Positions 39,466 to 64,000 of a stretch of 64,000 nt of DNA are shown here, piece after piece (the stretch's first letter is position 1; the number at the start of each line of letters is the position of its first letter). Where the stretch lies: contig MU004236.1 of assembly GCA_010405405.1 (NCBI GenBank), positions 1,990,070 to 2,054,069 of the forward strand. The letters run 5' to 3'. The notes under the pieces are model-generated. The model saw only the letters and a list, made by a program, of their open reading frames with translations. It was not told the origin of the DNA and ran no database searches. Both the position numbers and the translations under genes were made by a program. Source of the stretch: Microthyrium microscopicum (taxonomy: Eukaryota; Ascomycota; Dothideomycetes; Microthyriales; Microthyriaceae).

Positions 39466-39470
39466 ATTAG

Positions 39471-39712
39471 AGAATTCTAATACTCTAATTAAATAAGGAG
39501 TTAGTAAAGCTAATAGATTTAGTAAATCTATAAAGAATCTTTAATAGGGTCTAAGACTATACGTATAGAATATTAATCTATATAGGCGCTTCTTTAGAAG
39601 TAAATTCTAGGGTACGTAATATAAGCGTATAAGTAGTTAAATAGTTCGTAGATTATATAATAAGCTATAGAACTTAGAGTAAGTAAATAATTAGATTATA
39701 TTTTAGAATCTA
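39471..39712. mobile_element. Probable remainder of the outer gypsy fossil and its right terminal repeat
   Basis: Sequence following the inner element's target duplication. Bases about 39,655-39,712 match about 23,450-23,507 near the left end of the outer element. I read this as the far end of the outer Ty3/gypsy fossil, separated from its body by the nested insertion. The boundary is approximate, and how far the match extends leftward is unclear. Confidence 0.5.
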
Positions 39713-39782
39713 TAAACGACATCGTGAAAAAATTATTATACATTGCAAATTGGACTACGTATTATACTAGAAAAGTTATATT

Positions 39783-40270
39783 TAACTTATTATAAAGATA
39801 TCGGATGCGTATAAGATAACTACGTACTTTATTAAAAATATTTTAAAAGTATTTAAAATATTTTAAACTTATTAGGTACATCGTAGTTATTTTAAACTTA
39901 TTATAAAAACATTAGATGCATATAAGATAATATATACTTTATTAGAAATATTATAAAACTATTTAAAATATTTTAAACTTATTAGGTACATTATAGTTAT
40001 TTAAAACTTATTATANNNNNNNNNNTATTAGGTACATTATAGTTATTTAAAACTTGTTATAAAAATATTAGATACGTATAAGATAATATATACTTTATTA
40101 GAAATATTATAAAACTATTTGAAATATTTTAAACTTATTAGGTATATTATAGTTATTTTAAACTTATTATAAAGACATTAAATGCGTATAAGATATTATA
40201 TACTTTATTAGAAATATTATAAAACTATTTAAAATATTTTAAACTTATTAGGTATATCGTAGTTATTTAA
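39783..40270. repeat. 110-bp tandem satellite repeat interrupted by the assembly gap
   Basis: At least four head-to-tail copies of a unit of about 110 bp. Key landmarks are AAACTTATTATAAA, GATGCGTATAAGATA, TTTATTAGAAATATT and TTATTAGGTACAT. Starts fall near 39,783, 39,894, 40,004, 40,050 (right of the gap) and 40,160. Copies differ by point changes including CpA/TpG losses, so RIP acted on the array. The gap lies inside one copy, so the true copy number is unknown. Confidence 0.9.
40016..40025. other. Assembly gap (10 N)
   Basis: Exactly ten N inside a tandem satellite. Both sides carry the same repeat unit, and the phase breaks across the gap (46 bp instead of about 110). The fixed length suggests a placeholder for a gap of unknown size. 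Confidence 0.98.
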
Positions 40271-40329
40271 GTATAGCTTATACTATACTTAAGTAAATTT
40301 ATTATAGCTAGAGCTACGTATAATAGAAT

Positions 40330-40430
40330 ATAAATAATGCTTACTAGTAACTTTCTATATATCTAGATATATCTAGACATGTTTAGATATGTCTAGATAT
40401 TAGTATCTAGATATGTCTAGCACTTAGATA
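40330..40430. repeat. Short interspersed palindromic AT-rich motif
   Basis: Several copies of a TCTAGATAT/TCTAGACAT-like motif that is close to its own reverse complement. Related TCTAGATATATCTAG strings recur in the modular array up to about 44.7 kb, always just before AGATAAAGTAGTAACG-like sequence, so they are part of that repeat module. Confidence 0.5.
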
Positions 40431-40699
40431 AAGTAGTTACGATCTTTAGGTAGAAGATGTAATTTTTAGGAAAAGGGATTAAAGATTACTATATAACTAG
40501 CTACTAAGGCGTAATAGCCTTTTCTAATTAGTTAAGATATTGCTATTTTTATATCTTACGCTTTAAGTAAGCTATGCATCGCCTTTATAGTCTATCCTTC
40601 TTAAACGTTCTAATTAGCCTTTAATATTATTATTCTAGTCCTAACGGGTTATAAGCAGGATATACGACTAGGCTTTTATCTCTTAGACCTAATAGAAAG

Positions 40700-43600: not shown

Positions 43601-45000
43601 AAATGTTTCCTTAGTCGTTTTAGTAGCGTCCTATACGAGCTCTTCTTCTAAGACAACGAAAGGGGTTCCCTTATAATAAATATAGTTAAAGAACGCTGTG
43701 CAAAGCTAGGGTCGTATTTAAGAACTTAGTAGTTACTAAAGTAGTTATTAAGGAGTAATAATCTTTCCTTCCTAGTTAAGATAGCGCTATTCCTATATCT
43801 TACGCCCTACTAAGTGAGCAGTGTATTGCCTTTATAGTCAAATTAAGCGATTATGTTAATGAATGCGTCTATACTCCTAACTAGTTAAAGAAATAGCTAA
43901 GGACTACCTTAAGCTCTGTCTGTAGGTAGGTAGATTAAATGCTTAGAGTAATAATAGTCGTCTAGGGGTCGTTACTACGTATAGGAACGTTGCTTACTAG
44001 TAACCTTTATTATATTTAGATATATCTAGCACCTAAATAAAGTAGTAACGATGTTGAGAGTAGGCAAGGCAATAGTACCTTTAGCGGTATATTAGTTAAT
44101 TATAATAATAAGAGTAATAGTAAATAGTATATAAATTAAGCTAAAAGTAGCCTAATTATCATTTTAATTATATAGTACTACTTGCCCCTTTACGCAACTA
44201 GCGGAGTTAGAGATTTATCTACTATTCCTAGTCTAATGGAGGTACTATTACACAGCTATCAAACTAAATAAGGATACTTAAGCAATGCGGTAGAGGCATT
44301 AAGTAGGCAAATGTTTCCTTAGTCGTTTTAGTAGCGTCCTGTACGAGCTCTTCTTCTAAGATAACGAAAAGGGTTCCCTTATAATAGATATAGTCAAAGA
44401 ATACTGTACAAAGCTAAGGTCGTATTTAAGGACTTAGTAGTTACTAAAGTAGTTACTAAGAAGTAATAACCTTTCCTTCCTAGTTAAGATAGCGCTATTC
44501 CTATATTTTACGCCTTACTAAGCGAGCAGTACATCGCCTTTATAGTTGAATTAAGCGATTACGTTAATAAATACGTCTATACTTCTAACTAGTTAAAGAA
44601 GTAGCTAAGGACTACTTTAAGCTCTATCTATAGGTAGGTAGATTAGATACTTAGAGTAATAACAATCGTCTAAGAGTCGTTACTACGTATAAGAACGTCG
44701 CTTACTAGCAACCTCTATTATATCTAGATATATCTAACACCTAGATAAAGTAGTAACGATATTAAGAGCAGGTAAGGTAATAGTACCTTTAGTAGTATAT
44801 TAGTTAACTATAATAATAAGAGTAATAGTAAATAGACTAGATTTTTTTAAATGTTTCCTTAGATATTTTAGTAGCGTCCTATATAGGCTCTTCTTCTAGG
44901 ATAAAAAAAGGGGTTCCCTTATAATAGACGTAGTTAAAGAACGCCATGCAAAGCTAGGGTTAAGGGTTTAGCATCTTTATAATTCTCGTATTAGTAAGGA
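40700..45000. repeat. Modular long-period repeat array of unknown identity
   Basis: At least three modules recur in plus-strand orientation. One holds GGGTCGTTACTACGTATAGG followed by a TCTAGA-like box and a run ending in ATAATAATAAGAGTAATAG; copies start near 40,995, 41,895, 42,540, 43,258, 43,968 and 44,672. A second, about 160 bp, begins TAGAGATTAATGTTAAAG and ends in a CCTATAGGAATAAGAGAGTT block (near 41,540, 42,180 and 42,810). A third begins AAATGTTTCCTTAGTCG and contains ACGAGCTCTTCTTCTAAG (near 43,603, 44,310 and 44,856). Successive copies lie roughly 640-900 bp apart. Modules combine in different orders, so this is a higher-order array built by duplication. No function is visible; protein-like patches occur but belong to no family I know. 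Confidence 0.75.
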
Positions 45001-46017
45001 CTTAGCAATCTAATAAACATTATTGAGAAAAGTAGCTATCCTTAAGTTAATAAGAGCATACTAATTATTAAGGTAGGAAAGCCTATATCGTAATAATAGG
45101 TGTTTTCCTAATCTAAGGCTAATAAATAAATTAAGTAATAGAGAAGCTTCTATAAAGAAGAGTAGAACATCTAATAATATTAGAGTTATTAACCTACTAA
45201 CGTACTAAAAATAGTTTAATTATAGTACTATAAGAGATTCTTATAAGCTAGGTACTAGTTTTAGTAATAAAGTAATTAAAGAATTTTAAGACTTTAAAGC
45301 GTCTATTAGTAAGTAATGCTTCTAGAATATATATTAGCTAATTACTAACAAATTTCGTATACCTATAGGTTATACCTTCTAAGTTAAGAACTATAAAAAT
45401 TAGTTTATTAACTAAAGTAGTTAAAGAGTCTATATATTCTATACTCTTTACTACTAAATCTATCTCTTATTAACTTTGCTTTCCTTTTAAGTATTTAGCG
45501 TACGCTTTTATAAAGTTAAAGTACGAAACTAAGTAATCGCGTTAATAAATACGTCTATACTCCTAACTTATTAAAGAAGTAGCTAAGGATTACCTTAACT
45601 TCGTTTATAAGTAAGTAGATTAGATGCTTAGAGTAATTATTTATAGTGACGATAATTGCGTTTGCCTTAACTTTAATATAATTAAGATTATTCAAACACT
45701 AGACTTATTTTTAGTATCGTTGCCTAAAGCTTTAGCGACGAGATTATAGCCTTTAAATATTCCTATAGTAAGTATAATAGTTAGTACTTTAAAAGTTTAG
45801 GTAAGTAATGGCGAAGGACGACTTAGTAATTAGACGGCTTCCTAACGTCCTTAGCCTAACTAGCTTTTATAAGCGTGTAAAGAAATTATAGCTATTAAGT
45901 ATACTCTTAAGAATGAGAAAACAAGCTCCTACTAAAATATCTAAGCTCTTATTATAGATACGGCAAAGCTAAGATAGCTAATTATTAATAGATTACTAAA
46001 TAAGGATAATAATCTAT
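45001..46017. other. Unassigned AT-rich sequence with more surviving CpA/TpG
   Basis: A mixture of low-complexity and somewhat GC-richer sequence (about 45,630-45,960) in which I see no tandem structure and no family motif. It may be the degraded end of an adjacent transposon. Confidence 0.4.
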
Positions 46018-46738
46018 AGATAGTAGGTAGTTGTAGCTTATGCTAAATACGGAAACTTTATATTAGTTCCCTAAGTATAGGATTAGGATTAGGTAGTAAC
46101 TTCTTATTAAAGAAGCAGTTATTATTAACGTTAGCTAAGCTATATATACCCTTCGCTCGTATAACTACCTAGCTAGCTTTATTCTTTCGCTCTTTTAGAT
46201 AGGTTAGTTTTATGTAAATACGAAATAAGAACTAAGCTAATCCGTATATATTAACAGTACCGTAATTACCTTAATAGGATATTATAAGCTTAGGTAATAG
46301 CCTATTAGGGTAGAAAGCTGCTCTACTAACGTTAATATTAACTAATATATAGGAAATCGTAAGTTAAGTACTAGTATAGATAGTAAGTAGTTGTAGCTTA
46401 TACTAAATATAGAAACTTTACGTTAGTTCCCTAAGTATAAGATTAGGATTAGGTAATAACTTCTTATTAGAGGAGTAGCTATTATTAATGTTAGCTAAGC
46501 TATATATACCCTTTACTTATATAACTATCTAGCTAATTTTATTCTTTCGCTTTTTTAGATAGGTTAGTTTTACGCGAATATGAAATAAGAACTAAGCTAA
46601 TCTATATATATTAATAATACTATAATTACCCTAATAGGATATTATGAGCTTAAGTAGTAGCCTACTAAGATAGAAAGCTACCTTACTAACGTTAATATTA
46701 ACTAATATATAGGAAATTATAAGTTAAGTACTAGTGTA
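46018..46738. repeat. 360-bp unit in two tandem copies
   Basis: Two head-to-tail copies of a unit of about 360 bp, beginning near AGTAGTTGTAGCTTA (46,026 and 46,386). Landmarks such as AGGATTAGGTAGTAA, CTTCTTATTA, CTAACGTTAATATTAACTA and GGATATTATAAGCTTA recur at the same offsets, the last in variant form. The copies differ by scattered transitions. No third full copy is adjacent. Confidence 0.85.
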
Positions 46739-48120
46739 GTATCCTTAGAGAGCTAATAAGCTGCTATTAAGATAAAGCTATTATAGATTAGCTCTAATAA
46801 ATGGAAAGACTTTTCGTAGTCTAATTGTAGCTACGTTTGTATTAGATTAGTAAAAGTGGTTAAAGAATATATTAAGAGATTAAAAAAGGGTTAGCTAATT
46901 ATTATAGCTAGCGTTAGATGCTATCTTAATTAATATAAACTAAATAGCTACTAAGATATTTATTATAGGGAGTAGTAACTAAAGGTAATTTCTTAGCTCT
47001 TTATAACTTTACTATAATTTGCTAGCCTAATAAAGAATTCTTCTAAGATGAGCTATTTACTTTTCTTTTATAATATAATATAGAGTTAGTTAAATACTTT
47101 ACTTAGTTTACCTAGAAGAGATTATCTTATTAGTAAGTGCTTTCTAGTATTAAGAATCTATATTCTTAATTACTCTACTAAGTTAACTATAATCTAGGAA
47201 TAGTAAACTTACTTAATTAACTTCTAATCTAGGAAGGTATACTTAAAATGCCTCTTTCTATCTATTAGTAATAAATATATTACTAAATTATTTAATATCT
47301 ATAACTTTAATAGTATAAAAGTTATATAGCTATGCTAAATATCTATATATATATTATCTATATGCTATATATAACTAAAACTACTTATTAAGTATATATA
47401 GGTAAAAAATAGTACCTACTTATATAAAACTATATAGTTATTTCTATATCTTAATAAATATAAGCCTATAGAAAGCGGTCTTACTATATATAATAGTATA
47501 ATATTAATTAAATAGTAAATAGGATAGAGCTTTATAACTTTTTTATGCTCTTATAGTAAATAGGTATATAAATATATATAGTCTATTGCTAATTTAAAAA
47601 GATAAGAGTTACTTAGAACTTTATTTATTATGTTTATTATAAAGAAAGAGACTATAAAGTAAGTATACGTTTTACGTAATTAATTTAAAGAAACTAAGTA
47701 AGTATAGAAAATAGAGTAAAGAAGAGAAATAAGCTACCTACGCTTAGCTATTAATTTTTCTTATCTTCTATATAAAGAATGTCTATAATATAAAAAAATA
47801 GAGTTTCTTTTACTTTATATATAAGGTTTAAAGTCTTAAGTAGCTATAAGGAAATATACTTTTTTAAGTATAGTAGTGCTTTAGTATTGCGCTATATAAA
47901 AGCTATTAAAATAACTTTAATAAGCGCTTTCCTTATACTTAAGCTAAGTAGAAAGTAGAATAAAAAGAGAAAGAGGAGGTTAAATTAAGTTAAAGCTAAA
48001 GAAAAGATTTAGGAAGAGTACTATCTTAACTAAGAAGGAAAGGTTATTATGCCTTAGTAATTGCTTTAGTAACTACTAAATCTTTAGATATTTACTATTC
48101 TAATATAGTTAAAAATAATT
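46739..48120. other. Unassigned AT-rich sequence
   Basis: RIP-degenerated sequence with scattered longer stop-free stretches. I see neither a domain signature nor a repeat that I can name. It precedes the 63-bp minisatellite and could be part of the same decayed element. Confidence 0.4.
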
Positions 48121-48189
48121 TTTGCTTAGGGTTTATCTCCTTATTACTTTAACTTCTATATTCTTTAACTTAATAAGCCCTTTATGTCT

Positions 48190-48480
48190 TATTGTAGTAA
48201 TTATAGTAGCTATAGAGGTAAATTTTATGGTGGTTAAGGTGGAGGTAGGTTTAATAGAGAAGGAGGTGGTGGCTATAAAGGCGAATTCTATAGCGGTTAA
48301 GGCAGAGGTAGGTTTAATAGAGAAAGAGGTAGTAGCCATAGAGGTAAATTCTATAGTAGTTAAGGTGGAGGTAGGTTTAATAGAGAAGGAGGCAGTGGCT
48401 ATAGAGGCAAATTTTATGTTAATTGATGTGGAAATAGGTTTAATAGAGAAGGAGATAGTGGTCGTTATTATTATTAATTA
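48190..48480. repeat. 63-bp minisatellite, Gly/Arg-rich in one frame; a partial copy follows at about 48,630-48,790
   Basis: Four copies of a 63-bp unit: AGGTTTAATAG starts at 48,247, 48,310, 48,373 and 48,436. The period is a multiple of three. A plus-strand frame reads a Tyr/Gly/Arg-rich RFNREGGG-YRG pattern, as in RNA-binding RG tails, while another frame gives the longest open frame in the AT-rich block (133 codons, 48,122-48,523). The RG-rich reading looks like the ancestral one; the long frame is an artefact of the period being a multiple of three. The sequence is degenerated. The host element is unidentified. Confidence 0.65.
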
Positions 48481-48799
48481 TACTTCTTCTAGTATCTGCT
48501 TAATAGCTTTAATAATAGCCTAGTTATATCTTTTATTTCTATCTTTTTTCTTCTTACTACTTCTAAACTCTAATATAACTCTACTACTTTACTTATAAAG
48601 CTAACTAAAATATTAGAGGTCTTAGGATATATAGAATATATAGTAGAGGCGAATTCTATAGTAGTTAAAGTGATAATAGAGAAGGAGGTAGTAGTAGTAA
48701 AGGTAAGTTCTATAGTAGTTAAGGTAGAGATATAGAAGGGCTAAGGTAGTAGCTATAGAGGTAACTTTTATAGTAGTAAAAGTAGAGTAGTATATTAAG

Positions 48800-50430
48800 T
48801 ATTATTATAATATCTCTAACTTTTCCTTATATAAAGTAGACCTTATAGAGAATAAAGGATGCTAAGTAGTAAATACTTAAAGTACTTTTTTAGACGTTCC
48901 TAGACTTCTAAGGTGCTTTAAAAGCGCAAGTAAGGAAAGGTAATGTAGCTATATATAGTAGTAATAGCCTCTAGATATAGTGTTTTTTAGGGAAGCTAAG
49001 TAGTAGTAGCTTTCCTTTATAATAATATATATTAAGTTAAAAGTATTACTTCTATGCTAGATATAGTTCCTATGCTAATAAAGAAGTTTAGTAGTTTAAT
49101 ATTATTATAATTACTATCTTAGATAGGTTGGTTAGAATATAGGTAGTAAAGCTAGTTAAAGTTAGTTGTAAAGCCTTACTTAAGTATTTTAAAGAGTAAT
49201 AGTGTTGTTATTAACTTTATAAACTCTAACTTCATGTTTTGGTAGTATAGGTTTATTATAGGATAATATAAGCTAAATAAATAAGGTAAGCGCGTAATTG
49301 CTTTAGTTAAGGGCACTCTTTAGTGGTATATTAATTGTCTATAATAATAAGAGTAATAGTAAAGGACTAGTTTTTAGGCAGTAGGCTTAAGATGAGGGCA
49401 ATCTGTTTAGAAATAACTAAGACTAATAAGTGCGTAAATAATAGCGTAAGTAATGATAAATATTAAGGTAAAGTATAATAAGCGTTAAGTTAATCTCTAT
49501 CGCTATTAAGAATGGTTACGTATTTAAAATCCTCTTTAATATTCTGCTTAATAGTTTAAAAATAGTAGTCCTATTACTAGATACATAATTACCTACTTTA
49601 AGAACCTTATTTAGTATTTATAATTTTTTATAATATATATATCCTATTAGCGTATAACTAAAGTCTTAACCCTTATAATAAATAGCGAGCTACTCTTATA
49701 TAAATATTAAGAGGTAATAGTTACCTTTATAGCTAGCATCTTAGAGGCTAGTAAAATAGAAACTATAAGGGCATTTAGCTATAATAATAAGTGTTATACA
49801 TAGAAGGCTTATAGTAGTATTATTAATAGGATAGAGCCCTTTGTATAGTTTGTGGAGTTAAGGAAGTTTGGTATTAAGGGCTATTTCGTATTATTCTTCT
49901 AATATACTATCCTAGTAGGTAATAACGTTAGTAAGGTATCTTTTATGCTTAGAATACTAAAGTATAAGATATTGCTTAGATAGAGTAGTTAGCCTAGTTT
50001 TAATTTTATCCTTAACTTTAGAAATTGCTTTAGTAATATAGGTTCGTAATGAGAGTAACTACGTAGTAAGTATAAGATAAAGTAGATATAAGATAATAGT
50101 CGTTTATATACTAATCTATTTTATAAGTAAATATAGGTTTATATATACTTAAAAGTCTAAGAATGTCTATAAAGACTTAATTTAAACTACTAAAGCTGAC
50201 TTTAGTATGTTCTATAGTATAATAAGCTATAGTATAAATATATAACGTTCTGTAAATTAGATTTATAAAGTACATAGTAGTAGTGCTTATTATAATACTG
50301 CTAAGCTCCTAAATAATAGATAAAGATATTAGAGTAGTGACTTTAGAGTAAAATTCTGTTATTTATATAAATTACTATTATTACTAATAAGTCTTTTGCT
50401 TTTTATTTAATATGCCGTTTCTCTTCTATA
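48800..50430. other. Unassigned AT-rich sequence with one isolated repeat-module motif
   Basis: Most of this is degraded sequence with no family signal. Near 49,340 a single copy of the ATAATAATAAGAGTAATAG motif seen in the modular array recurs, some 4.5 kb beyond the array. A stretch around 49,700-50,040 reads rather like a protein in the plus direction but is not assignable. Confidence 0.45.
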
Positions 50431-50436
50431 AGATCT

Positions 50437-50850
50437 TATTAGAGAAAATATTATATTAATACTGTTTTATTATTAATGTAATGCCGCCTTAAGTATTATA
50501 AGTTGTTGCTTAAACTCGTTTATAGAGGGGAAGGAATCTATACTTTAGTAATATGCTGCTACGCGTTATTATTATTATTGTTATTATATAATTAGTATAT
50601 ACTTGTAGTATAATGCTTATAAAAATATTATTAAAGTAATATAATAATGTTTACCTTAGTGCTAGCGCTGTAATTGCTCTTCTATAGTACTATCCTAAGG
50701 CCGTTCTGCTTTTATAGTAATTATATGTCGACTTTCTAAAAAATAATATTGCGTTAATGCTGTTTTATTGTTAATATAATGCCGCCTTAAGTTCTACAAA
50801 TCGTTGCTTAAACTTATTTAAAGATAGAGAGGAGCCTATACTTTAATAGT
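50437..50850. repeat. Direct repeat pair of about 110 bp, about 300 bp apart
   Basis: Copies at about 50,437-50,550 and 50,738-50,850, each with TAATGCTGTTTTATT-like and ATGCCGCCTTAAG blocks, a TTGCTTAAAC block and an AGGAGCCTATACTTTA-like tail. Key positions are offset by 298-300 bp. They may be solo terminal repeats or two rounds of a small insertion. Confidence 0.55.
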
Positions 50851-51249
50851 AGGAAATTAAGAAAGTTAGGAAGAGGGTCTAGCTTTAGCGCTTTAGCGCT
50901 CTAATATAGTATTAATAGACGTAAGCTAGAGTATATTAAATAAGGTATTAATAAGTCTAAAAATCTTAATAACCTTCTGCTTTAGTATATAGTTTAGCTT
51001 AATTTTAGTTGTAGGTTTATTACGTATTATAGCTACTATAAATAGCTACTTATTTAATTCGAATAATAGTAATAAGTGCCTAAATATAATATAGGATATA
51101 ATAGCTATAGGTATAAGTAAGAAGGAGTATAGTAAAGTATAAGGAACGTATTAAGAATATTAGCAGAAGATAAGGCGTATAAGAGTTAAGTTTAGTTTAA
51201 TGATAGTAATATTTTAGTAAGTTTTAGTTTAGTCGCGACTTTAGAGATA

Positions 51250-53300
51250 TTCAGCCCTAAACCTATTAATAGTACTATTTAATATTCCTTTTTATTTAGC
51301 TGCTAAAAGCTTTTATAACATTATTATTAAGCTACTAAAGAATAATAACTTCTAAATCTTCTAAAAAAGCTCTTCTTATTAGCTACTAAAAACGAAAACT
51401 ATTTCTCTCTACGTTACTATTAATAAAAAGTCGTAATTAAGCTTATTACGTTAGTTTTATTACTTAAAGAATTAAACGCTTTTTAGTTAGTAACTATTAA
51501 GTTTACTACTAAGAACTAGCTTTATTATAATAAATTAGGCTACGAAAAATTCCTTACTTTATTTATAGCTTTAGGTCTTAATATTATAACGTGCAATAAA
51601 TGTTTCTATTAGATATATATTTAGTATAAGAAAGCTAAACATACTAGGTAAGGTGTTTAGTTATTATATCTTTTTAATAATATAATATAGAAAGATACTT
51701 AAACTTCTAAAATCTCCCATTCTTATTAATAGCTCCTATATCTTATTTTAGGATTACTCTAAATAATAGACACTATCTCTTTAACACGTGCTAAGATATT
51801 ACGATTCTAGACTAATAAGATATAATAACTATCTTAAAGATAAGGCTTTATAAGCTATACTTACACTAGCTACAGAGATAAATTAGTAGCATTGCAACGC
51901 TTATAAATTAATAATTAAACTAGATACTAGCTACTACTATATATAGTAAGCTATGCTTTTTAAGTTTTTGTCTTATATTAATATATTAAAAAATTAGTTA
52001 CAAATATAGTTAATTAGTTCTACTATATTTATAGCGTTAAGTAGAAGAAGTATTACTATCTATAGTAGAATAAGAATTAATTAGTTGCTAAAGCTAACGT
52101 AATTATTAATTAAGAGCTAGCTAGAAGATGACGAGTAGTACTAGTAGAGTAGGTTTAACGTATAAAAGAGGTAAGATAGGAGCTAATTAACTAATATTAA
52201 TATACTTATTTGCGATGACTTAAGAAGATTAGGCGTTAACGTCTAGAATGCACTATGCTAAAAAAAACCTAGCTTTATACCTACTAGGACGCGAAGAATA
52301 GATTTAAAAGCTCTAACTATAAAGTCTTACTTACTTAAAAATAGAGAAATTAAAGATACTTTAATAGGACTATGAATTCTATTAGGCTTATATTGAACTC
52401 TTACCCCTACTTTCCTTAAATAGTGTATTATCTATACCTATATCTCGTCCTTTCTCCCTATCTATTTAAAAAGAGATACTTTATATCTTTATATAATAAC
52501 TATCTCCTTATTACAAGCTTTACTGTTTATGGCTAAGAAGAGAAGATTTTTGCTATACTCTAACTAGACTATAATATAGTATACGTTATATAGATAGCTA
52601 TAGATTTAGCGCCCTATAAATATCTTAATATATATTAAAATACTACGCCTATATTTTCTCTTTCGTTATTAGTACTAGTATTAATAGCCTAACCGCTTTT
52701 AGAAAGACGCTAAGGCTCTACTTAAGAATCTAGTTTTTGCGTATTTATATAGTAACGACTTACTTATCTACTTCTAGGACTGTATCTTACTAAAGAGAGT
52801 CTAGTAATATAGTGTTTATAAGTTAGCTAATAGTCTGTTTAGTAGAATTAAGGTTTTACTAATAAGTAGTATAAGAGTCTAGGTAAACTTTATACTTAAG
52901 TTCAGTTTAATTAGTTTCTAAGGGAGATTCTGTGTCTAAGTCTAGGGCATTATTATTGTTCTCTTCTAGCTTAGGAATTAATTTAGCTAGCATAATAGCT
53001 TTAAGGAGTTAAGGAGTAGTTTAAGATTCTAGATATTCGTAATTTATATTTTTTAGATAGGAGCGTGCTTTAAATAAGGGTACTAAGAGAATTAAGTATA
53101 GTTTTTAGTTATCTTAAAGACTATAATATATAGTTTATAGTAGAATTAAATAAAAGATGCAATAGTATTATGATAAGTAGTAGTAAAGCTATTAATTAAC
53201 TAAGCAAGTTATTATGAATAAAGAAGGTTATTAGAAACTAAGATAATAAAGATATATAACGAAGGTAAATAGCTACTATTTTAATTATTACTATAAATAG
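51250..53300 (+). pseudogene. Unidentified decayed coding sequence
   Basis: A long stretch whose plus-strand reading looks coherent (fewer stops than the surrounding DNA, balanced composition, a basic Gln-rich tail near 53,100-53,250). I could not match it to a family. It lies upstream of the Plavaka-like relic and on the opposite strand to it. It could be another transposase-like gene. Start and end are unknown. Confidence 0.35.
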
Positions 53301-53499
53301 TAGATAATTATTAGGTAACGTTTAGGTCTAGTAATTAGATAAGCTCTTTTTAAAAGCTTAAGGTAAAGTATAGAAAAGATATATATATTAGAAGTAAGAT
53401 AAAGAAGTAAAATAAGTTTAGATTACTATAAATACTAAAGAAAAAAGATTTAAAATTAATAACCTATTATTTTATTTGAAGAATTATGAATTAAAAGCT

Positions 53500-56400
53500 A
53501 TTAAAAAGAATGAATAATTTTACCTCTTATATATATACTATTCTACGTAAATATATATTCCTAAAGTTCTTAAGTTAATTTATTCTATCGTATTTTATAT
53601 TATACTAACTATTATATTTAAGTCTATAACTAATACTAACGAAACTAAATTACTTAAGAAATAATATTATAATAATAATAATAATACTTAGTAATCTATA
53701 AAATATACGACTCTTAGGTAATAAAACGTTTATTAGACCTTTATTTTACTATATATCTTCGTTATTATTGCTATTATTTTCTTTGCTATTATTGCTAGTT
53801 TCTTCTTTGCTATTTTTGCTAGTCTCCTACTTACCTTCTCTACTACTATCTAGTTTATCTTCTCTATTTTTTACTTCTTTTCTATTACTACGTTTTATTC
53901 TCTTTGCCCTATTAGTAAGCTTCTTAAAATAAACTTTAATCTAGGCTTTATAAAGCTCTCTATTCTTTCTTTCTAGGGCCTTATGTCTTGTTATAGTTTT
54001 AGCCTTAGCTACCTTAATTCCTTATTTACTAAAGATAATTAGGTTATATATTCTAGTATAATTATTATAATTAGAGTATAAATTTAACTAATAATAATTA
54101 AGATACTTTAAGTCTCTATAAGAAACTATATATATAATAATTAATAGTTTGTTTAGTTTATATATTTTCAACTTTATAACTAGCTTAAATAATATAAGAC
54201 CTAATAGCCTATTAAACGTAAGTTTTATAGCTTTTCCTAAAATTAGTATATACTCTTAAACTAAAGCTATAAGAAATCTAGCGTATTTATGTTATAATTT
54301 AAAATCTCTTATTATTTAATTTATATTATATACTATATAAATAATAAGTAGTTATATAGGAAGTTAACCTAAAAGACTAAAATTATTATTAAGCTTTTTC
54401 TTAGATATGGGATAGGCTTAAGCCTATATAAAGTTACGTCGCTAGTAATTCTTAGTTAAGACTTTACTATACTATTAATTATTATCCTTACCTTTCTACT
54501 ATTCCTATTTATAGTAGGCTATAAAGGGTTACGTATTGTTCTTATTATTATCTATTACGTAGGTTATGCTACTATATAATATTATAATAAGGTAACTTAG
54601 CTAGAGAGCGTTAGGATATAATACTTTACTAGAGTATATAAAGTCTAGTCTGTCGTTAATAAAATCTTTATTTAAATATATTTCTTTACTCTATATATAT
54701 AATAGTATTAGCTTTAGAAAAGACTAGTGCTTCTTAAGGTCTTCTTTGTAGCAATTAATTAACTAGCTATATAAATAACTCTTAAGGTTGTTAAGCTTAG
54801 CCTATTTGCTAACATTCCTAGTAAAAAGTATACTAGATTTATAAATACCCTTATTATATAGCTCGTCTATATAATATAATTAGAGTTATAAACTATATTT
54901 AGGTATACTTAATAAAATAATTATAAGATAAGTTCTTTTAGATATAATCTTCTTCTTAGTAATATTATAGACTTAATAGTTATAGTTATTATTATTATTC
55001 TAGATTATATTCTTAATATGATTAGTAAGATAGTAGATTATTTAAACGTGCTAACTAAGTTAAAAGTTAGTCTATTTTGTTGCTAATATAGTATACTCCT
55101 AATATAACTTTTTTATAATATTAGAACTAGTTCTATCTATAGTGCTAAATATATGAATAGATAGTGCAAAGTAGATTAGGTTATAAAACTTAGGGAAATT
55201 AAGCCCTTTAAACCTAGCTTAAGAAGTCTTATATTTATATATTACTATTTTAGTGTATTCTATAATTTATAAATAGACTTATATATATTTAAGTATATTC
55301 TTATTATGTAACTTATAGCTAGAAAGTATAATAATATTTATTAAAGCTTTAATAAATTTTATTATAATTAGGTCCTTTGGGTTTAAAAGTAGAGCTAAGG
55401 TAGCTATAAGTTACTTTGAAAGTATTTATAATTCTAAGCTAGTCTTTTATTAAACGTTATAGTAGCCTTAGGCTATTCTTAGAAAGCCTAGATAAATAGG
55501 ACACTATAGAAACCTATAATTAATTATAGACTTTATTTTTACGCTAAATATAAACTTCTTTTTTTTCCTCTTCTATTTAGTCTTTAGTATATTGCTATTC
55601 TTCCTTTTAGTCTTTAGCGTCTTATAAGTATAAATTTTTTATATAGCTCTATTATTCTTTATTTTAGCTATTAGTACTATAGATATTACTAGTACTCTCT
55701 TTTCTAAAATAATTTAGGCTGTCTAGTCTATTGCTTACTTAACTAGTCTATTTAAAAAGAATATATATAGTAAATTAAAAGTAATTACTATGTGAATATT
55801 TAATAAAGAATAATTCTAAGTAAAATTATAAATTTTATAAACATAGTCTTTGCCTTTAGTATTATTAGTAGTAGTAAGCTACTTAGTATACTCTCTTTTT
55901 TAATTAGTGTAGCGAAGTACTTCCTACTTTAATATATTCTTTTACGAAGTTATATAAGTCTGATAGGCCTATTTGCTAGTAAGGTCTTACTAATATAATT
56001 ATAGTACTAAGTAAATAGGATAGTAATGTTTAGACTAGATACTTGTAATTATAATAAGCTCTTTATAATCCGTACTTACGTAAGTAAGAATTAGAAGATA
56101 TCTTTAAAACTAGCTATTAGTAGTTACTATAACGTAATTACTCTTAGGGACTATTCTAAATTCTATATTTTATTAGTAAATAGCTTTATAATACTTAAAC
56201 GCGTAGTATTAAACTTTTAAATATAATATCTATAGCGTTATAAAATATTTTAAGTTTGTTATTAACGTTTATACCTTTTAACCTAAGGAATACTATAATA
56301 GAAAGAAATCCTAGTCTTTCTATAGCTCTTCTAATACTTCCTAATAGATTAAAAATAGTTATATAGTAAGCCTATATATAGTTGTTACTATGTTATTTAG

Positions 56401-57300
56401 ATATTGTAGTCTTATCTAACCCCTAGTAAATAAGGATAAGCATAATACCTAAATTAACCTTATCTTATAATTCTTACTATCTTTCTACTAATTAAGTATT
56501 AGTATAGATATGCTTACTATCTTTATCCTTTTATATTATAGGCTTAAAGTAGAGGTCTTTAGTAAAAGGCTTATAGAAGATAAAGAATTTAATAACCTCT
56601 AAGATACTCTAAAAGTATACTTTGACTTTACTACCTAAAAGATTTTTAATACTTTTTATTTTATTATATAATAGCCTCTTAAGTATTACTTTCTACTAAT
56701 TAAGTATAAAGCCTTTAAGGTTATTAATATTTTCTATTAGTAATTTGTAATCCTTTGCTTTCTAACTAAGTAAGTTATGTATTTTACTCCTAAAGACTAT
56801 TTCCTAGAATAACTTGTTTACTTTATTCTTTAACGTACTACTAGAAACTACCTAACTAGTAAACTTTAGTTCTTTCTTTAGTTAACTCTATAGCTTTACT
56901 CCTCTATAGAGCTTTTCTTTCTTTAAATAATAATATTAGTACTCTATCTTAATAATATCTTAGGGTAGTAGCTTATACTTATTAATCTAATTGTAGCTTT
57001 CGTTAGTTCTATAGGCTAGTATAGGTATATTTATTAGATATTTTAGATTTTATTATAAGTATATAATAACTTTATTAACTATATATTATATACTACTCTT
57101 AGACTTTTAAGACTTATTAGCCTTATCTATCCTATTTTATAAACTATATTTATACTATATTAAAGTAGTAACTCTTTTTGTAGCTTTAAGGGTAGCTAAA
57201 GATAAAGGTATAGTAAAAAGTGTAATTATTTTATCTTTTATTATAGACGTTTTAGACGTAGTATAGTTATAACTAGGATAAGTAGTAGATCTTATACTAG
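53500..57300 (-). mobile_element. Plavaka/KDZ-type DNA transposon relic
   Basis: A minus-strand relic of a large transposase. Readable blocks in order on the minus strand: FFYKPFTKDLYFKPI near 56,530-56,575, LGLDKTT-type sequence near 56,390-56,455, and an LTYVSTDYKELIIITSI block with KHYYP near 56,010-56,085, followed downstream by a Lys/Arg-rich C-terminal tail near 53,800-54,010. This matches the order of conserved blocks in Plavaka transposases of fungi (a CACTA-related KDZ lineage), where a DKTT-type motif is followed by a cysteine-containing LTxVSTDYxEL...HCPxC block. Many codons are lost to stops at former Gln and Trp positions. The ends are not defined; recognisable inverted termini were not seen. 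Confidence 0.65.
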
Positions 57301-58399
57301 TAGAGGGACTATTTATAAAGAGTTCTTTTATTAGAGTTTCTATTACTAGTATTAACCTTTATACTTAATTAAAAGGCCTTTAGAGGCGATTATAAAGGTT
57401 TGCGGTAAAGAGGAACTATATACCATTTAGAAGACTTAATATACCTATATTTAAGAAGATTAGTTTATAAGAATAGTAATATAACTTATTTAGGTTAAAT
57501 ATATACTAGGGGACTAAAACGTATAAGTTAGATAGGTCTATATTTAATTGCCTTTCTTTATTATTATACGCAATACTAGAAGAGTTATACTAGTATATTA
57601 ACTTCTATATCTATTTTATCCTTATTAACTTTTAAAGATATAGGTATATTTTTAGTATATAAGTAGTAAATCTAGTATTAAATTTATACTAGTAATAATT
57701 AGCGTTTGATTTTACTTAGTATTCTAAGGCTTAAGTAGTAGAGTTAATTTCTAAGAATATTACCTAATAATATTTTATTATATATATAATATACCTTTAC
57801 TTACTAGATATTTCTAAACGTGCTAGATATTTTTAGATATTTTAGATAGCTAGTACTAAGACTAAGTAAGAATACTAGCTAATCTTATATAACTAATAAA
57901 TTATAATATTATACTAGAGATATATTATATAACTTTATATTATTAATTACTAGCTTAGTAAGTTAACTTTTCTAGTAATAGTACTATTCTATCTACCTTT
58001 TTAGTCTAACTCCCTTATATATCCTTTTTTATTAAATTTTTCTACCTATATAATCTCTTTATTCTAAACCTTTTTTCTATTTAGTACTAACTATTATACT
58101 ATCTAAGTTAGTTAATTAATTAGCTAAATGAACTTTACTTTAAACTTAAACCTTCTTACTATCCTTTTCCTTATTACTATTTCTTACTACTAATCTTTAC
58201 TAACTTTACCTTCTTTATTAGCTTTATTAGCTTTAAATTCTTTATTCTTAGGTTTAAAACTATAAAGTAAGGTTAGTTCTATAAGATCTCTAATTACTTC
58301 TAGTTCTTTAAGTATAATAGTTTTAATCTTTTTATGTATATTTAGCTCTTTCTTGTGATAAGAAATTACTCTATTAAAGTTAAGAATATTAAGTTTCTC
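57301..58399. other. Junction between the Plavaka-like relic and the helicase relic
   Basis: AT-rich sequence with short TCTAGATAT-like motifs near 57,800-57,850, a polypyrimidine-rich stretch near 58,020-58,080, and a short tandem tract. No gene is assignable. It may include the 5' end of the Plavaka-like relic and the 3' end of the helicase relic. Confidence 0.4.
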
Positions 58400-60354
58400 T
58401 AAATTTTAATAAGAGTAATTATTAATAAATAGTATATACTATATATAGCTATTATTAATAAAATATTTTAGCAATCTACTAAGTATAGATTATTTGAACT
58501 CTTCCTATCTCTTAGCACTAGGGGCTATTATAGTACTATAAAGCTTTAAGTTACTAAAGAATAAGGATAAGTAGCCTTAAGATACTATAGTATTTATTTA
58601 TAGGTTTTCTATAAAGAAACTAGTGTAATCTTTTTGAACGAGATTAATAAGATTCTAATTACGCTTAGTACTAAAGCTGTTGTCGTAGGTAGTTATTAGA
58701 ACCTAGCTAAATTACGAAGGTATATCTTAATAGTCTTACTAGGTATACGTATAATTATCCTAAATATACGTAGTAACTTATTTAAGTAGCTAATCTTTAG
58801 TTTTAGTATAGAGGCTAATTTGCGTAAGGTAAGGAGTAATAACTATAGTATTAACGCTTTTTAATTGTATCTATAGTAGAAGTTTAATCTATATAAAGGC
58901 TATAATATAAGCGTTATGAGTATTAGAACTTAAACTAATGACGTCCTTTTTAACTTTACTATCTTTAATATTTATAAATATTGTGAGTAGCGTGTCTTTT
59001 CTGTGTTCTAAGAATAGGAAGAGCTAGCTTATAATATATTATAGTTAGTTAAATTTAAGGTTATTATTGTTAATATATTTAAGAATTTTATAGCTTATGT
59101 TATTAAGGAAATTATAGTGTGATAAATTAAATCTAAATACCCGTTTTAGTATAGTTTAGCTAAAGCTATTTACTATAGCGTTATATATTAATAGTGCTTA
59201 AGAACTGTTACGAAATGTAGCTTTTTTATATTTAAGATTATAGATAGGTCTAAGCTAGAATAGATCTCTAGTCTATATAATTATTTAAGGTCTATATAGA
59301 GATATAATAGCTATTATCTATAATCTATATAATGCTACTATTTTATTATAAATTTATAAGTTAATACCTATAAAATTTGCTTAGAAAAGCTCTTATAGGG
59401 CGTTATAGTTTATAAAACTAAGAAGAGTGATTATTAATTATAAATAATATTACTTTATATCTAATAATAGTTTGCTATAATTAGCGCTCTCTAACTTTAA
59501 GAGCTTCTTCTCGCTATAATACTTTTCATTAAGAATTTAGAGGTTAAAAGTATAATTAAGCGACTTTTTAATAACTATATCTATATCGTATTTTTGCTTT
59601 CCTATTACTAAGTTAATTATGCTAATTATCTTACTAGCTTAATCTATGAATTCCCTAAATGAGTATTTAAAACGTTTAATATAACGATTATGGATACTTT
59701 TAAAGTCTTAATGTTTAGTATTTATGTGGAGTTACTATAAATAGTAAGCACTATGCTATTTAGTAAGTAATACTATTTTAGTATCTAAAATATTAGTGCT
59801 GTAGTTATCTATGTCGTCTATGTTCTACTATTGCGTACTAGGACCTTAATTTTAGTAGACTTAGATTTGTGCCTCTTTTGATTTCTTTAAAACAATAGAT
59901 TTCTCTATCTTAATTAAGTATCCTTAGATAGCAAAAAATTGTAAAAGGTTCATAGGATTAACTTCTATGTAGATATTTATATACTTAGTAATAAGGTTAT
60001 TTAATTATGTGTTTATAGTATATGTAGCCAAAATCTTTATCTTAAAATTAAGATAAAATATTATAAGGGCGATTAATATTGCTATTATAGCTTTTATAGT
60101 TTTAGTCTTGCCGTATTCTAGCCTAATATAGTAAATATTAAGTCTACCCTTACTGCCTTTTAAAAGAACAATATTAATGAACTCTTTTTGATCCTTATAA
60201 AGAGCCTTTATAATACTAATCTATTCTACCTTTTTTATAAGATTTTGAATCTCTTTTAAGGTAATTCTAAAGTTAGTCTTTAGTAATTATGTAGAAGTAG
60301 CTATACCTAGTCCTATAAAAGTACTTAGTAACTAGTACTAATTATTATTAATAT

Positions 60355-60425
60355 TAGTATTATTAATATTAGTAGTATTATTATTATTATTATTATTATT
60401 AATATTACTATTATTAGTATTATTA
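60355..60425. repeat. ATT-type trinucleotide tract, Asn-rich in the helicase frame
   Basis: Runs of ATT and AT-rich triplets between the helicase core and the Ser/Thr repeats, reading as an Asn/Ser/Thr-rich linker on the minus strand. A further tract lies at about 60,500-60,525. Confidence 0.65.
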
Positions 60426-60544
60426 GTATTTTTTATAGGCGTAATCTTGTTGTCTAACTATTTATTAGAATTAAAAATATCTTTAGGTATATCTTTATAG
60501 GTATTATTATTATTATTATTATCGTTATTAGCGTCGTTAGCTAT

Positions 60545-60650
60545 ATTTAATTACTAACCCTATTTATTATTAGCTACTTTTAATTACTAACTCTATTCGT
60601 TATTAGCTACTTTTAATTACTAACCCTATTCGCTATTAGCTTTAGTAACC
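60545..60650 (-). repeat. 33-bp (11-codon) tandem repeat, three copies
   Basis: Three copies of a 33-bp unit (starts near 60,551, 60,584 and 60,617), with an L-K-V-A-N-N-E pattern in the minus frame. It lies within the decayed helicase gene, next to its Asn-rich linker. Confidence 0.75.
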
Positions 60651-60679
60651 TTTAGCTTAGTCTATTAATCCTAAGCTTA

Positions 60680-61090
60680 AGACTCTGTGGAGGGGGAGGT
60701 GCTATTATTAGTAGAATAGAGGGGCGCTGCTGTAGTAGTATTTAGGGATTCTATATTAACGTTGTCTTAGACGGAGGGGGAGGAAGGACGAAAGGTATTG
60801 TTATTAGTAGAATAGAGAGGCGCCGCTGTAGTAGTATCTAGGGATTCTATATTAATGTTATCTTAAATAGAGGGGGAGGAAGGATAAGAAGTATTATCGT
60901 TATTAAGATAGAGGGGCGCCGCTATAGTAGTATCTAGGAATTCTATATTAACGTTGTCTTAGATGGAGGGGCGGGGAGGCTAAGAGGTGCTATTATTAGT
61001 AGAATAGAGGGGCGCTGCTATAGTAGTATCTAGAGATTCTATATTAATATTGTCTTGGACGGAGGGGAAGGGAGAACGAGAAATACTATT
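60680..61090 (-). repeat. 96-bp (32-codon) tandem repeat, about four copies, in the helicase frame
   Basis: Copies have landmarks (GGGGCGCYGC) at 60,721, 60,817, 60,913 and 61,009, a period of exactly 96 bp, or 32 codons. In the minus frame each unit reads as Ser/Thr/Pro/Asn-rich with an SLDTTTAAPLYSTNN core. The repeats retain more GC than the surroundings, so they escaped the worst of RIP or arose after it. Confidence 0.88.
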
Positions 61091-63500
61091 ATTATTAGCT
61101 TTAAATTCCTATTTAAACTAAGATTTAGTTATATAGTTAGATAAATCTAGATTAAGTAGCTTATTAATTAGCTTTTATAAAGTAGAACTACTGCTTATTT
61201 TCTTTAAAGTTTCTTTAGTCTAACTAGTTAAAGGTTTTAACGTGTTATTCTTAATATTACTAGAGAATAAGCTACTTAATAGAGTATCCTTTTATACCTT
61301 ATTAACCTTTATAGTTAACTTTTTTAGTGTATTAGTATCTATTAATACTTCTTTAGTACGCTTTAATATAATACTAAACTCTACCTTTCTAAGGAGTAAG
61401 GGTAAGGTATAGATAGTAAGAATCTTCTCTAATAAAGGCTAATGTTCTAAGAAGTCTAGGTATAAGCTAAGTACTATAGTAAAGTAGTAATCTAGGTTAT
61501 ATTCTTTTTGTCTTAACTACGCTTAGTTAAGATTATTTATTTAGCATATAATAGGCTTATCTAAATTATATATATATACCTTAACCTCTAGCCCTTTTAG
61601 TTTAAGGAAGGCCTTGCGTAGATTCTTAATTAATTAGCTATAGTCTAGGGGAATAATAACTTCTTTAAGGATTTAGAATAAAGAGAATTAAGTATTATTA
61701 GTATATTTATTATTAGGTATAATAGAAGGATGATATATAATTATAAGCACGTTATAGGTAGCTTAAATATTATAGTTTTGGTTAATAACTTTAGTAGTAA
61801 ATTAAGAACCCTTAAGTCTAGCTCCTAGCTTAAGTTAGATTATATAGACGTTATTCTCTTAAAAATAAGGATATTTATGTCTATTTACTATAATATAGAA
61901 ATTAAGGCTTACTAGGAATTTATAGTCTTTACCTTCTAGTATTCTAGTAGCACATAATATAGTATTATAGGGAGCCTTATTCTATTTATACGCCTAATAA
62001 AGCTATTCTGCTAGATCTATACTCTAGGCTATAAATAGATGTAGGACTAAAGGATAGACTATGTGTAACAAACTCGTAATTCTGTTATTCTTTGCTTTTA
62101 TAAGATTATTATAATTATCTAGAAAAGTAATATAATCCTTCTATGGGCTAAAGACGCTATTTATAAATAGATAATTAATATTAGTAGGAATAATATCTAG
62201 ATTAGTTTATGTGCCTTAAGAGATTAGCTAAGGAAGATTCTTTTTTATAAGTATAGCTAAGCTGGCATTAACCTTAAAGAACTAGAAGACTATGGGGTAC
62301 TAATTCTAAATAGTATATTAGAGATAGTGGAGAAGTAGATTAAATTTAGTATCCTTGCTGCTAACTATTAAATTGCTAATTATAGTAGAGTAGACTTAAA
62401 AAAAGTTGTTTAATAGGTTAGGGTATATCTTAATAATAAGTATAGTTATATAGCCTATAGCTAATATACTTCTATAATATTTAATGTCTTAATTAATCTT
62501 GTAAGCTAACTAGACGAGTTACTTTTCTAAGATAACTGTAGGAAACTTAATAACTATTTAGTCTATCTTTTTCTTCTTTATAATTAGATTATTTAGTAAG
62601 AAATAAATGGTTTTAACTATTAGAGTTATAATATTTTCTTATATATTATTTTTGTTTTTATTAACTTTAAAAGTATTTCTCTTGTCTTTAAGATATAGGT
62701 AAATAGTTAAGGTTAATATAAACTAAGTAACTTATTTATTATTCTTTATTATAGAGAATTGTGTTTTAATATTAGAAACTATAGCCTATTAATGCTTCTT
62801 TTTTAATCTACGTATATATTTAGGCTTACTAATAGTATTATCTTAATTAACTTTATTATTAATGCTATTACCTAAGTATTAATTTGCTTTATTAATTAGA
62901 TTATCTCTACTAAGAGCTACCTTTAGACCTTTCTTTAGTATATCTTCTAGATAAGGCTTATCTAAATATACTTATAAGCTATAAATTTGCTAGATTAAAG
63001 GCTTGCCGTTAGATAGATTTACTATAAGATTGTAGATAGTGTATTAAGGATTCTTAGGATCTATTTAAGATATTAGTATAAGGGTATATTTAGAGGCTTT
63101 TAAACTATTCTAGACTTTTGCTTTACCTTTGTTCTTAGTTTTAGGATTTTATTTACTTAAGTCTAAGAATATAGGTAAAGGATCCTTTTTAGCTAGGTAG
63201 GCAAAAATAGCTATAGAATCTAGTTTATATAAGTAATTAGCTAAGGATAAGGGAACGAATTTCTTTAAACTTATATTTTAATAACCTTAGAATTATTTAG
63301 CTTACTATCCTTATAAGGAGCGCAAGTTTTACGCTAATTAGGAAGAAGTTTTAGGATTATAATAGCTAGATGGCTAAAGATCTTAGTAGGAATTTCGTCT
63401 TTACCTATATCTTAGCTATAGATTTAGCTATTATAATTATATACTAATTGTTAAGTACGTAAAGTATTATAAGTAGCTATACTTATGATAAGTAGAGTAA

Positions 63501-64000
63501 GAATTAAGGAAGAGATAGAAAATATAAAGGATTTAGGTAGTGTTTTCTTTAAGGAAGGAGAAGTATTAAGAAGAGAAGATAAATAATAATAATAAAAGTA
63601 ATAACTTACTTACTATACTAAAGCCTAAAGGCGTAACTACTAAAAGTTAGCTATTTAGCCTAAACTTTAGGTTACTAAGCTATACTATCTATAAAAGAAT
63701 AAACTTAAGGAATTATTTAAAAGGACTTATTTAATTCTTATAATTACGAAAGATAGTAAGAAAGAGAGGTAATAATAAGAAAGAGGTTATAAGAATAAAA
63801 TAAAGAATTGCTCTCTCTACTAGAAACGCGACTAGAAGTTTATCTATTAATAGAGTTATTATAAAGCTATGCTATTCTGTATATAATAACTAAGTATAAG
63901 ATAGATTTAAAAGAACTTATTTAATCTAGTAATTATAGAATAGTAGTAAGAGAATAATAGTAAGAGAGATTTAGTAATAAGAAGATAGAAATATTCCTTC
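63501..64000. repeat. AT-rich window edge with diverged direct repeats
   Basis: Two diverged copies of an AAAAGRACTTATTTAAT... segment with a polar AGTAAGAGAG tail (about 63,718-63,790 and 63,908-63,980) lie about 190 bp apart. Purine-rich AAGAAG/AATAAT runs dominate. No gene is visible at the window end. Confidence 0.45.

What the first reader, a model, noticed from the sequence alone, without database searches (positions are those of the whole stretch)
58400..63500. Decayed SF1 (Upf1-like) helicase gene with tandem Ser/Thr repeats in RIP-affected DNA
This minus-strand region reads far more coherently than its neighbours. It has a Walker A-like GKTKTI and, about 1.3 kb downstream, ITPYLTQ/ITTYDNSF blocks in the order expected of motifs I to VI in SF1 helicases. 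Upstream it carries 32-codon, 11-codon and Asn-rich repeats. A helicase this large, embedded in mobile-element heterochromatin, could be a subtelomere- or element-linked gene family with copies elsewhere. Its relative lack of CpA loss suggests recent arrival or partial protection.
Basis: partly seen in the sequence, partly recalled or inferred. Interest (0 to 1): 0.72.

Follow-up and report, generated by a model that had tools for sequence, protein, structure and literature searches.

The report
Giant Plavaka transposon with decayed helicase
The damaged helicase-like gene belongs to a very large fungal jumping element, present in at least nine copies that have all been wrecked by the fungus's own mutation defence and that also carries pieces copied from ordinary host genes.

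Summary
The reading frame is real. A minus-strand frame runs 63.4 to 58.1 kb, with the 32-codon, 11-codon and Asn-rich repeats where stated. Ordinary profiles find no helicase. A test that models RIP decay across nine copies puts SF1 motifs Q, I, Ia, III, QYR, IV and VI in order (0 of 1000 shuffles reach it), but most of the signal is in Q-I-Ia. I call it a divergent SF1 helicase, likely but not proven. The gene is one part of a larger repeat: nine copies at 88-90% identity, with 526 of 527 variable sites in the helicase half holding only transitions. The repeat carries a Plavaka transposase (Pfam E=1.9e-9, above cut-off; below cut-off in three more copies) and a left end, CATCGTG..., at 39720, found in 7 of 9 copies. 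It extends at least 34 kb, past the window. Beside the transposase is a mosaic of fragments from three host loci. Best reading: a giant Plavaka-type DNA transposon with accessory genes and captured host DNA, amplified and then silenced by RIP. The right end, TSD and species were not obtained.

The parts
39720..64000 (.). Part of the element inside the window; it continues through L034 to at least window-coordinate 74000
   Evidence: Left end shared by copies; the nine copies continue to the end of L034 or within 7 bases of it
39720..39749 (+). Left terminus CATCGTGAAAAAATTATTATACATTGCAAA
   Evidence: RIP-degenerate 30-letter pattern, up to 3 mismatches: 23 genome hits, reversed control 0; present at the far left end of 7 of 9 helicase copies
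39774..40270 (.). Subterminal tandem repeats, period about 110 bp (N run 40016-40025)
40728..44835 (.). Array of 636/708-bp tandem units; its length appears to differ between element copies
46015..46739 (.). 360-bp tandem duplication
51360..52259 (+). Host-gene fragment, part A: copy of the C15:608 kb IBR/RING gene
   Evidence: donor ORF hits IBR, E=5.9e-8
52250..52604 (-). Host fragment copied from C6:855 kb, inverted
52612..53579 (+). Host fragment copied from C14:502 kb (beside an ORF that I read as chitin synthase; not tested)
53583..53739 (+). Host-gene fragment, part B of the C15:608 kb locus
53750..57900 (-). Decayed Plavaka transposase region (approximate limits, by eye; frames -1 then -2)
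   Evidence: Pfam hit inside it; low-stop minus frames
56207..56644 (-). PF18759 Plavaka match, stops read as X
   Evidence: E=1.9e-9, 37.7 bits, cut-off 26.3; three more copies below cut-off, E=4.7e-5, 2e-4, 5.2e-3
58101..63400 (-). Decayed large ORF (about 1770 codons) with SF1 helicase-like C-terminal part
60071..60139 (-). SF1 motif I (Walker A)-like block
   Evidence: rank 1 of 725 positions
59981..60037 (-). SF1 motif Ia-like block
   Evidence: rank 1 of 725
59234..59284 (-). SF1 motif III-like block
   Evidence: rank 2 of 725; placed there by the forced chain
59084..59161 (-). SF1 QYR-like block
   Evidence: rank 8 of 725; forced chain, score negative (-5.8)
58796..58855 (-). SF1 motif IV-like block (ITPYLTQ)
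   Evidence: rank 2 of 725; forced chain
58547..58624 (-). SF1 motif VI-like block
   Evidence: rank 1 of 725; forced chain
60703..61098 (-). Ser/Thr-rich 32-codon tandem repeats
60537..60641 (-). 11-codon tandem repeats
60341..60430 (-). Asn-rich run

Best explanation
The ORF is an accessory gene of a giant (at least 34 kb) cut-and-paste DNA transposon of the Plavaka type (CMC/CACTA-like). Shown: a Plavaka transposase domain lies just downstream on the same strand in 4 of 4 copies tested; the element has a fixed CATCGTG-type left end (7 of 9 copies) with subterminal repeats; at least nine copies exist. Shown: host-derived fragments from three loci are built into the element. Strongly indicated: near-identical copies spread and RIP then destroyed them, since copies differ almost only by transitions. 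Inferred: the transposase bound the termini and subterminal repeats to mobilise the element; the ORF encoded a divergent SF1 (Upf1-like) helicase; that helicase helped replication-coupled or gap-repair steps of moving so long an element; and such repair synthesis picked up the host fragments.
For: Nine colinear copies. 526 of 527 variable columns in the helicase half are transition-only. Plavaka above the Pfam cut-off, and in three further copies below it. Left terminus in 7 of 9 copies, control 0, agreeing in CATC with the PlavakaB terminus CATCA (PMC12730594, section 3.2.2). The nine copies continue to the end of L034. Host mosaic: 216/258, 37/47, 211/282 and 93/109 mismatches are in the RIP direction. 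SF1: forced nine-block chain 26.3 bits, 0 of 1000 shuffles and 1 of 1000 random block orders reach it; with ten blocks 32.6 bits, 0 of 1000. Q 3rd, I 1st, Ia 1st, III 2nd, IV 2nd, VI 1st of 725 positions.
Against: Ordinary SF1 profiles and PDB searches find nothing. hhalign against seven SF1 proteins gives E=0.097. A single-copy RIP-aware local alignment and a nine-copy one are not significant. Blocks after Ia alone are reached by 66 of 1000 shuffles. Motifs II and V fell elsewhere in the forced chain, and Ic ranks 116 of 725 at my reading. In the free chain 10 of 300 random block orders reach the score. RIP-decayed real SF1 genes score far higher (z 36.5-67.9 against 5.2). The AlphaFold model is uninformative (pLDDT 33). 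The right terminus and TSD were not obtained; the terminus pattern gave no inverted partner that I could assign to a right end. The genome-wide PF18759 search found nothing, and rang in none of its controls.
Confidence: 0.7

Rival explanations
1. The Plavaka and the helicase are two different mobile elements, one nested in the other before amplification, so that the helicase was only a passenger.
For: Only a left terminus was located and no right end was seen. The transposase region ends close to the host fragments, at one side of the gene block. Retroelement frames elsewhere in this block of DNA are separate insertions.
Against: The nine helicase copies all share the continuation to the right (9 of 9), and 7 of 9 run to the same left end; the other two abut runs of N. 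No internal boundary between 53.7 and 63.4 kb was seen in the copies held, apart from ends in runs of N.
Confidence: 0.17
2. Segmental or subtelomeric gene-cluster duplications decayed by RIP (like the X3X3R8 cluster of Stagonospora nodorum), with Plavaka debris inside, and not a transposon.
For: RIP-damaged helicase/ubiquitin gene clusters in nine copies are described in S. nodorum (PMC3017866 passages). Partial left-end copies lie near contig starts of C16 and C6. A partial copy on C4 departs from the window at 50482.
Against: The same left end in 7 of 9 copies and in further partial copies, a transposase, subterminal repeats, and mostly interior positions.
Confidence: 0.08
3. The ORF is not a helicase: a large low-complexity element protein with a P-loop ATPase stretch (Q-I-Ia) only.
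For: Statistical weight is mostly in Q, I and Ia; the blocks after Ia alone are reached by 66 of 1000 shuffles; no profile hit.
Against: The forced chain, which uses no reading of mine for placement, put III, QYR, IV and VI on the stretches that I had noted by eye, before any scoring.
Confidence: 0.22

Closest known systems
Plavaka DNA transposons of fungi (PlavakaB; PMC12730594: abstract, section 3.2.2, section 4.2 and passages seen)
   Same: Plavaka transposase domain; left terminus CATC(G) against CATCA; accessory gene carried by the transposon
   Different: Helicase-like and repeat-rich genes here in place of TET/JBP; RIP destroyed the copies; at least 34 kb. The Plavaka families of section 3.2.2 are from Agaricomycotina; I saw no size for them
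'Plavaka giant repeats' of Amoebidium appalachense (PMC11244446, passages seen)
   Different: Many of those genes are tyrosine recombinases, in a protist; 'helicase' does not occur in that paper's main text; here RIP instead of methylation
AcademH, Academ DNA transposons encoding a helicase in animals and fungi (Kojima 2020; only its title seen, in the reference list of PMC8290104; the paper is not held)
   Same: By its title, a DNA transposon lineage with its own helicase, also in fungi
   Different: Academ, not Plavaka, transposase; kind of helicase not seen by me
hAT and Tc1/Mariner transduplication in Pyrenophora tritici-repentis (PMC3538342, passages seen)
   Same: Fungal DNA transposon carrying host-derived gene sequence
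   Different: Small elements (2.3 and about 5.6 kb for the hAT forms) in near-identical copies; here fragments of three loci in one giant, RIP-damaged element
S. nodorum repeat R10 and cluster X3X3R8 (PMC3017866, passages seen)
   Same: RIP-damaged repeats with pieces of three separately located host genes (R10), or nine copies with helicases (X3X3R8)
   Different: X3X3R8 helicases are Rad5/SNF2-like and its nine copies carry gene annotations; no Plavaka in the passages seen
Upf1/Sen1/Dna2/ZNFX1-type SF1 helicases (own-genome loci L001-L008; names are my reading)
   Same: Order of Q, I, Ia, III, QYR, IV, VI-like blocks
   Different: Far weaker match than RIP-decayed copies of those genes; Walker A lacks the usual GPPG start in the nine copies

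Membership tests
SF1 helicase (AAA_11/AAA_12, Upf1-like) | Curated profile match above threshold | tested here: not met
   0 families in window frames and in 9 of 9 copies
SF1 helicase (AAA_11/AAA_12, Upf1-like) | Motifs Q, I, Ia, II, III, QYR, IV, V, VI in order | tested here: inconclusive
   7 of 9 blocks at the read places, 0/1000 shuffles; II and V not placed there; after Ia alone 66/1000
SF1 helicase (AAA_11/AAA_12, Upf1-like) | RecA-like fold | tested here: inconclusive
   AlphaFold pLDDT 33
Plavaka DNA transposon | Plavaka transposase domain PF18759 | tested here: met
   37.7 bits against cut-off 26.3; three more copies at E 4.7e-5 to 5.2e-3, below the cut-off
Plavaka DNA transposon | Conserved CATCA-type or TGT termini at both ends | tested here: inconclusive
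   Left end CATCG..., 7 of 9 copies; right end not reached
Plavaka DNA transposon | 2-3 bp target site duplication | not tested
Gene-capturing (Pack-type) DNA transposon | Host gene fragments inside the element, multiplied with it | tested here: met
   Three donor loci; the mosaic lies within the aligned stretch in 3 of 3 copies for which I hold it whole (window, L035, L036)
Starship | Captain tyrosine recombinase (DUF3435; recalled) at one end | tested here: inconclusive
   No such Pfam hit in the frames scanned, but RIP hides most domains and the right end is missing
Helitron | Rep HUH nuclease with a helicase | tested here: inconclusive
   No Pfam hit for either in the frames scanned; RIP hides most domains. 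A Plavaka transposase is present instead

The most novel reading that the evidence does not exclude
A class of giant cut-and-paste (Plavaka) transposons in RIP-active fungi that encode their own SF1 helicase and other repeat-rich proteins, and use repair synthesis to collect host gene pieces.
Probability: 0.45. Interest if true: 0.65.

Novelty: new variant of a known kind. Interest (0 to 1): 0.47.

Why it matters
If right, it shows that Plavaka transposons can reach at least 34 kb in a fungus with strong RIP, carrying a helicase and fragments of host genes, and that RIP can hide such elements from standard annotation. Of the open-access papers that name Plavaka (11 found, 10 listed), I saw passages or sections of eight; one of these reports giant Plavaka-linked repeats, in a protist. 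This would be a second, independent case.

Tried and rejected
Ordinary Pfam, NCBIfam, PHROGs and PDB searches of the helicase frame with stops as X, Q or W: no helicase. The L23 hit (E 0.025) and the allophanate hydrolase hits were taken as chance, as were POX and FAM75 in L034. hhalign and local RIP-aware alignment were too weak. AlphaFold was uninformative, so no fold search was run. A viral-contig scan found no relative. The first alignment (A1) mixed strands and was discarded for A2. The apparent left ends of four copies at 50364, 53332, 55745 and 57556 are runs of N, not ends. The L034 plus-strand ORF looked SNF2-like by eye (GKTIQ), but no tool supports it, so I do not claim it. The PF18759 search of the genome gave nothing and rang in no control: uninformative. 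Four negative-control ORFs were run (z -0.7 to 2.0); up to seven were allowed for, but only three window ORFs qualified besides the L042 ORF. Two of these, 1501 and 807 aa, were cut to 800 codons.
Full report
Observation. The window lies in a 36.9-Mb genome of 20 contigs (C7:1990070-2054069). I take it for a fungus with RIP, from size and mutation pattern; the species is unknown. From about 22 kb to the window's end the DNA is 20-30% GC with strong RIP indices, against 46-51% GC in the first 20 kb.

A repeat family. Searching 58100-63400 in the genome gives nine copies at 88-90% identity, one of them in two pieces; the helicase half matches in nine of nine, each with 50-61 stops in frame. Across those nine, 526 of 527 variable columns hold only C/T or only A/G. 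So near-identical copies spread and RIP then hit each of them. The window copy is the least damaged: fewest stops of nine, highest CpA count of nine in the helicase half (57 against 4-23), and highest GC of eight compared over 5.3 kb (0.255 against 0.189-0.232). Its excess of CpA over TpG on the minus strand runs from 45.7 to 73.7 kb, so it is a strand bias and no protection of the gene.

Is it an SF1 helicase? Ordinary searches say nothing: Pfam 0 families for six frame pieces and for nine of nine copies, with stops as Q or W also 0, PDB profile 0, NCBIfam 0 for the helicase half. I therefore took ten motif blocks from an alignment of seven own-genome SF1 proteins (names are my reading) and scored them against the nine copies under a RIP decay model, whose rates follow the host/element comparison. 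Free chaining of ten blocks: 35.7 bits, shuffles mean 13.1, sd 4.3, 0 of 300 reach; columns shuffled inside blocks 0 of 300; random block order 10 of 300 reach. In that free chain only Q, I, Ia and VI lay where I read them. At the places read by eye (motif letters noted before scoring; Q, Ic and the numbering were fixed): Q rank 3, I 1, Ia 1, Ic 116, II 6, III 2, QYR 8, IV 2, V 16, VI 1 of 725; the sum exceeds all 724 circular shifts, also without Q, I and Ia. These places were chosen by me, so the unbiased form is the forced chain: nine blocks 26.3 bits, 0 of 1000 shuffles, 1 of 1000 random orders, with seven of nine blocks landing on the read places; ten blocks 32.6 bits, 0 of 1000; the blocks after Ia alone are reached by 66 of 1000 shuffles. 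Positive controls, own SF1 genes decayed in silico and left out of the blocks, give z 61.7, 67.9, 48.7 and 36.5 against 5.2 here; four negative ORFs give -0.7 to 2.0. So the protein is either a very divergent SF1 helicase or was already damaged before the burst. hhalign (E 0.097, right region, best of seven inputs), local alignments and AlphaFold (pLDDT 33) do not settle it.

The element. Homology runs far beyond the finding. To the right the nine copies continue to the end of L034 (the next 10 kb of C7) or within 7 bases of it; three of them (C2:3.62 Mb, C4, C5) match L034:1-5000 in two overlapping pieces. To the left, copies run to one sharp end at 39720, CATCGTGAAAAAATTATTATACATTGCAAA. A degenerate pattern for it has 23 hits in the genome, none for the reversed control; seven of the nine helicase copies carry it 16.8-18.4 kb beyond the helicase ORF (distances from the coordinates). 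The other two abut runs of N in what I hold (L036 and L040). Four repeats of about 110-bp period follow the end, then a 636/708-bp tandem array whose length appears to differ between copies. In the window copy the unit is at least 34.3 kb. A partial copy on C4 departs from the window at 50482, which I cannot explain further.

Transposase. In the helicase's strand and frame, 56207-56644 matches PF18759 Plavaka at E 1.9e-9, 37.7 bits against a cut-off of 26.3. In three further copies one of three frames scanned matches, below the cut-off (E 4.7e-5, 2.0e-4, 5.2e-3). Kojima 2025 (PMC12730594; outline and abstract, section 3.2.2, section 4.2 and passages read) gives PlavakaB termini as 5'-CATCA..TGATG-3' with 2 or 3 bp TSDs; the left end here agrees in CATC. 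I could not reach the right end, so TSD and inverted ends remain untested.

Captured host DNA. 51360-53739 is a mosaic: part A of a C15 locus whose donor ORF hits IBR, an inverted C6 piece, a C14 piece, then part B of the C15 locus, neighbouring pieces lying within about 10 bp of each other or overlapping by as much. Of the mismatches to the GC-normal host loci, 216/258, 93/109, 211/282 and 37/47 are host C/G to element T/A, with 61 of 67 CpA changed in part A; transversions are 32, 11, 59 and 7; setting the RIP-direction changes aside, identity is 92.6-95.4%, so the capture is not very recent. The mosaic lies within the aligned stretch of the window, C12:992-1001k and C2:3609-3617k copies, so it moved with the element. 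A further stretch, L034 7.8-10.0 kb, has a 72-74% DNA relative at C6:1999-2001k that itself has stops; not followed.

Mechanism. Shown: multi-copy unit, fixed left end, transposase, host pieces, RIP damage in every copy. Inferred: cut-and-paste movement by the Plavaka transposase; helicase as accessory in replication or gap repair of so long an element; template switching in such repair as the source of the host mosaic; loss of the copies through RIP.

Comparison and novelty. Giant Plavaka-linked repeats up to 50 kb are in print for the protist Amoebidium (PMC11244446, passages), with tyrosine recombinase genes; the word helicase does not occur in its main text. Transduplication by fungal DNA transposons is in print (PMC3538342, passages), and RIP-damaged repeats holding three host genes or nine copies of a helicase cluster are in print for S. 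nodorum (PMC3017866, passages). Academ transposons with a helicase are in print for animals and fungi (title only, in a reference list). In the open-access library I saw no Plavaka with a helicase (searches). Of the 10 listed papers that name Plavaka I saw passages of eight (PMC12730594, PMC11244446, PMC9674265, PMC7473861, PMC8290104, PMC6396904, PMC12633428, PMC11075540) and two in the listing only; subscription journals are mostly not held. I file it as a new variant of a known kind.

Noticed in passing
23502-28200 and 33902-38000, minus strand: Decayed Ty3/gypsy-type retroelement reading frames; the first hits RT_RNaseH_2 (E=1.6e-11); the second looks like a reverse transcriptase by eye only, with no Pfam hit.
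   Followed up: partly
38601-39716: Dispersed repeat directly abutting the element's left end (CGA between them); its last 250 bp has 25 other matches listed in the genome (a capped list).
   Followed up: no
C7:710185, C7:714555, C2:4069345, C2:2670585, C2:3459268, C14:53970, C5:882642: Copies of the 30-bp left terminus that look little touched by RIP, away from the nine large copies: possible short non-autonomous relatives.
   Followed up: no
C16:9.4-14.1 kb, C6:20.7-24.8 kb, C11:1.72 Mb, C4:1.70-1.71 Mb: Partial copies of the element's left part; those on C16 and C6 lie near contig starts; one on C4 departs from the window at 50482.
   Followed up: partly
L034:1800-7500, plus strand (window-coordinates 65.8-71.5 kb): Divergently oriented low-stop frame with 108-bp (36-codon) tandem repeats at 67235-67951; the frame from L034:4200 on is kept in nine of nine copies; no family found.
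   Followed up: partly
L007 (C17:9605-13753): Uninterrupted 905-aa frame with an AAA_11 match (E=3.8e-22) about 11 kb from a contig start.
   Followed up: no
48204-48787: 63-bp and 58-bp G-rich tandem repeats on the plus strand, with a low-stop minus frame (14-15 stops per 900 bp at 47.5-48.8 kb).
   Followed up: no
about 20.5-22 kb: Abrupt change from about 47% GC DNA to RIP-damaged DNA of 20-24% GC.
   Followed up: no
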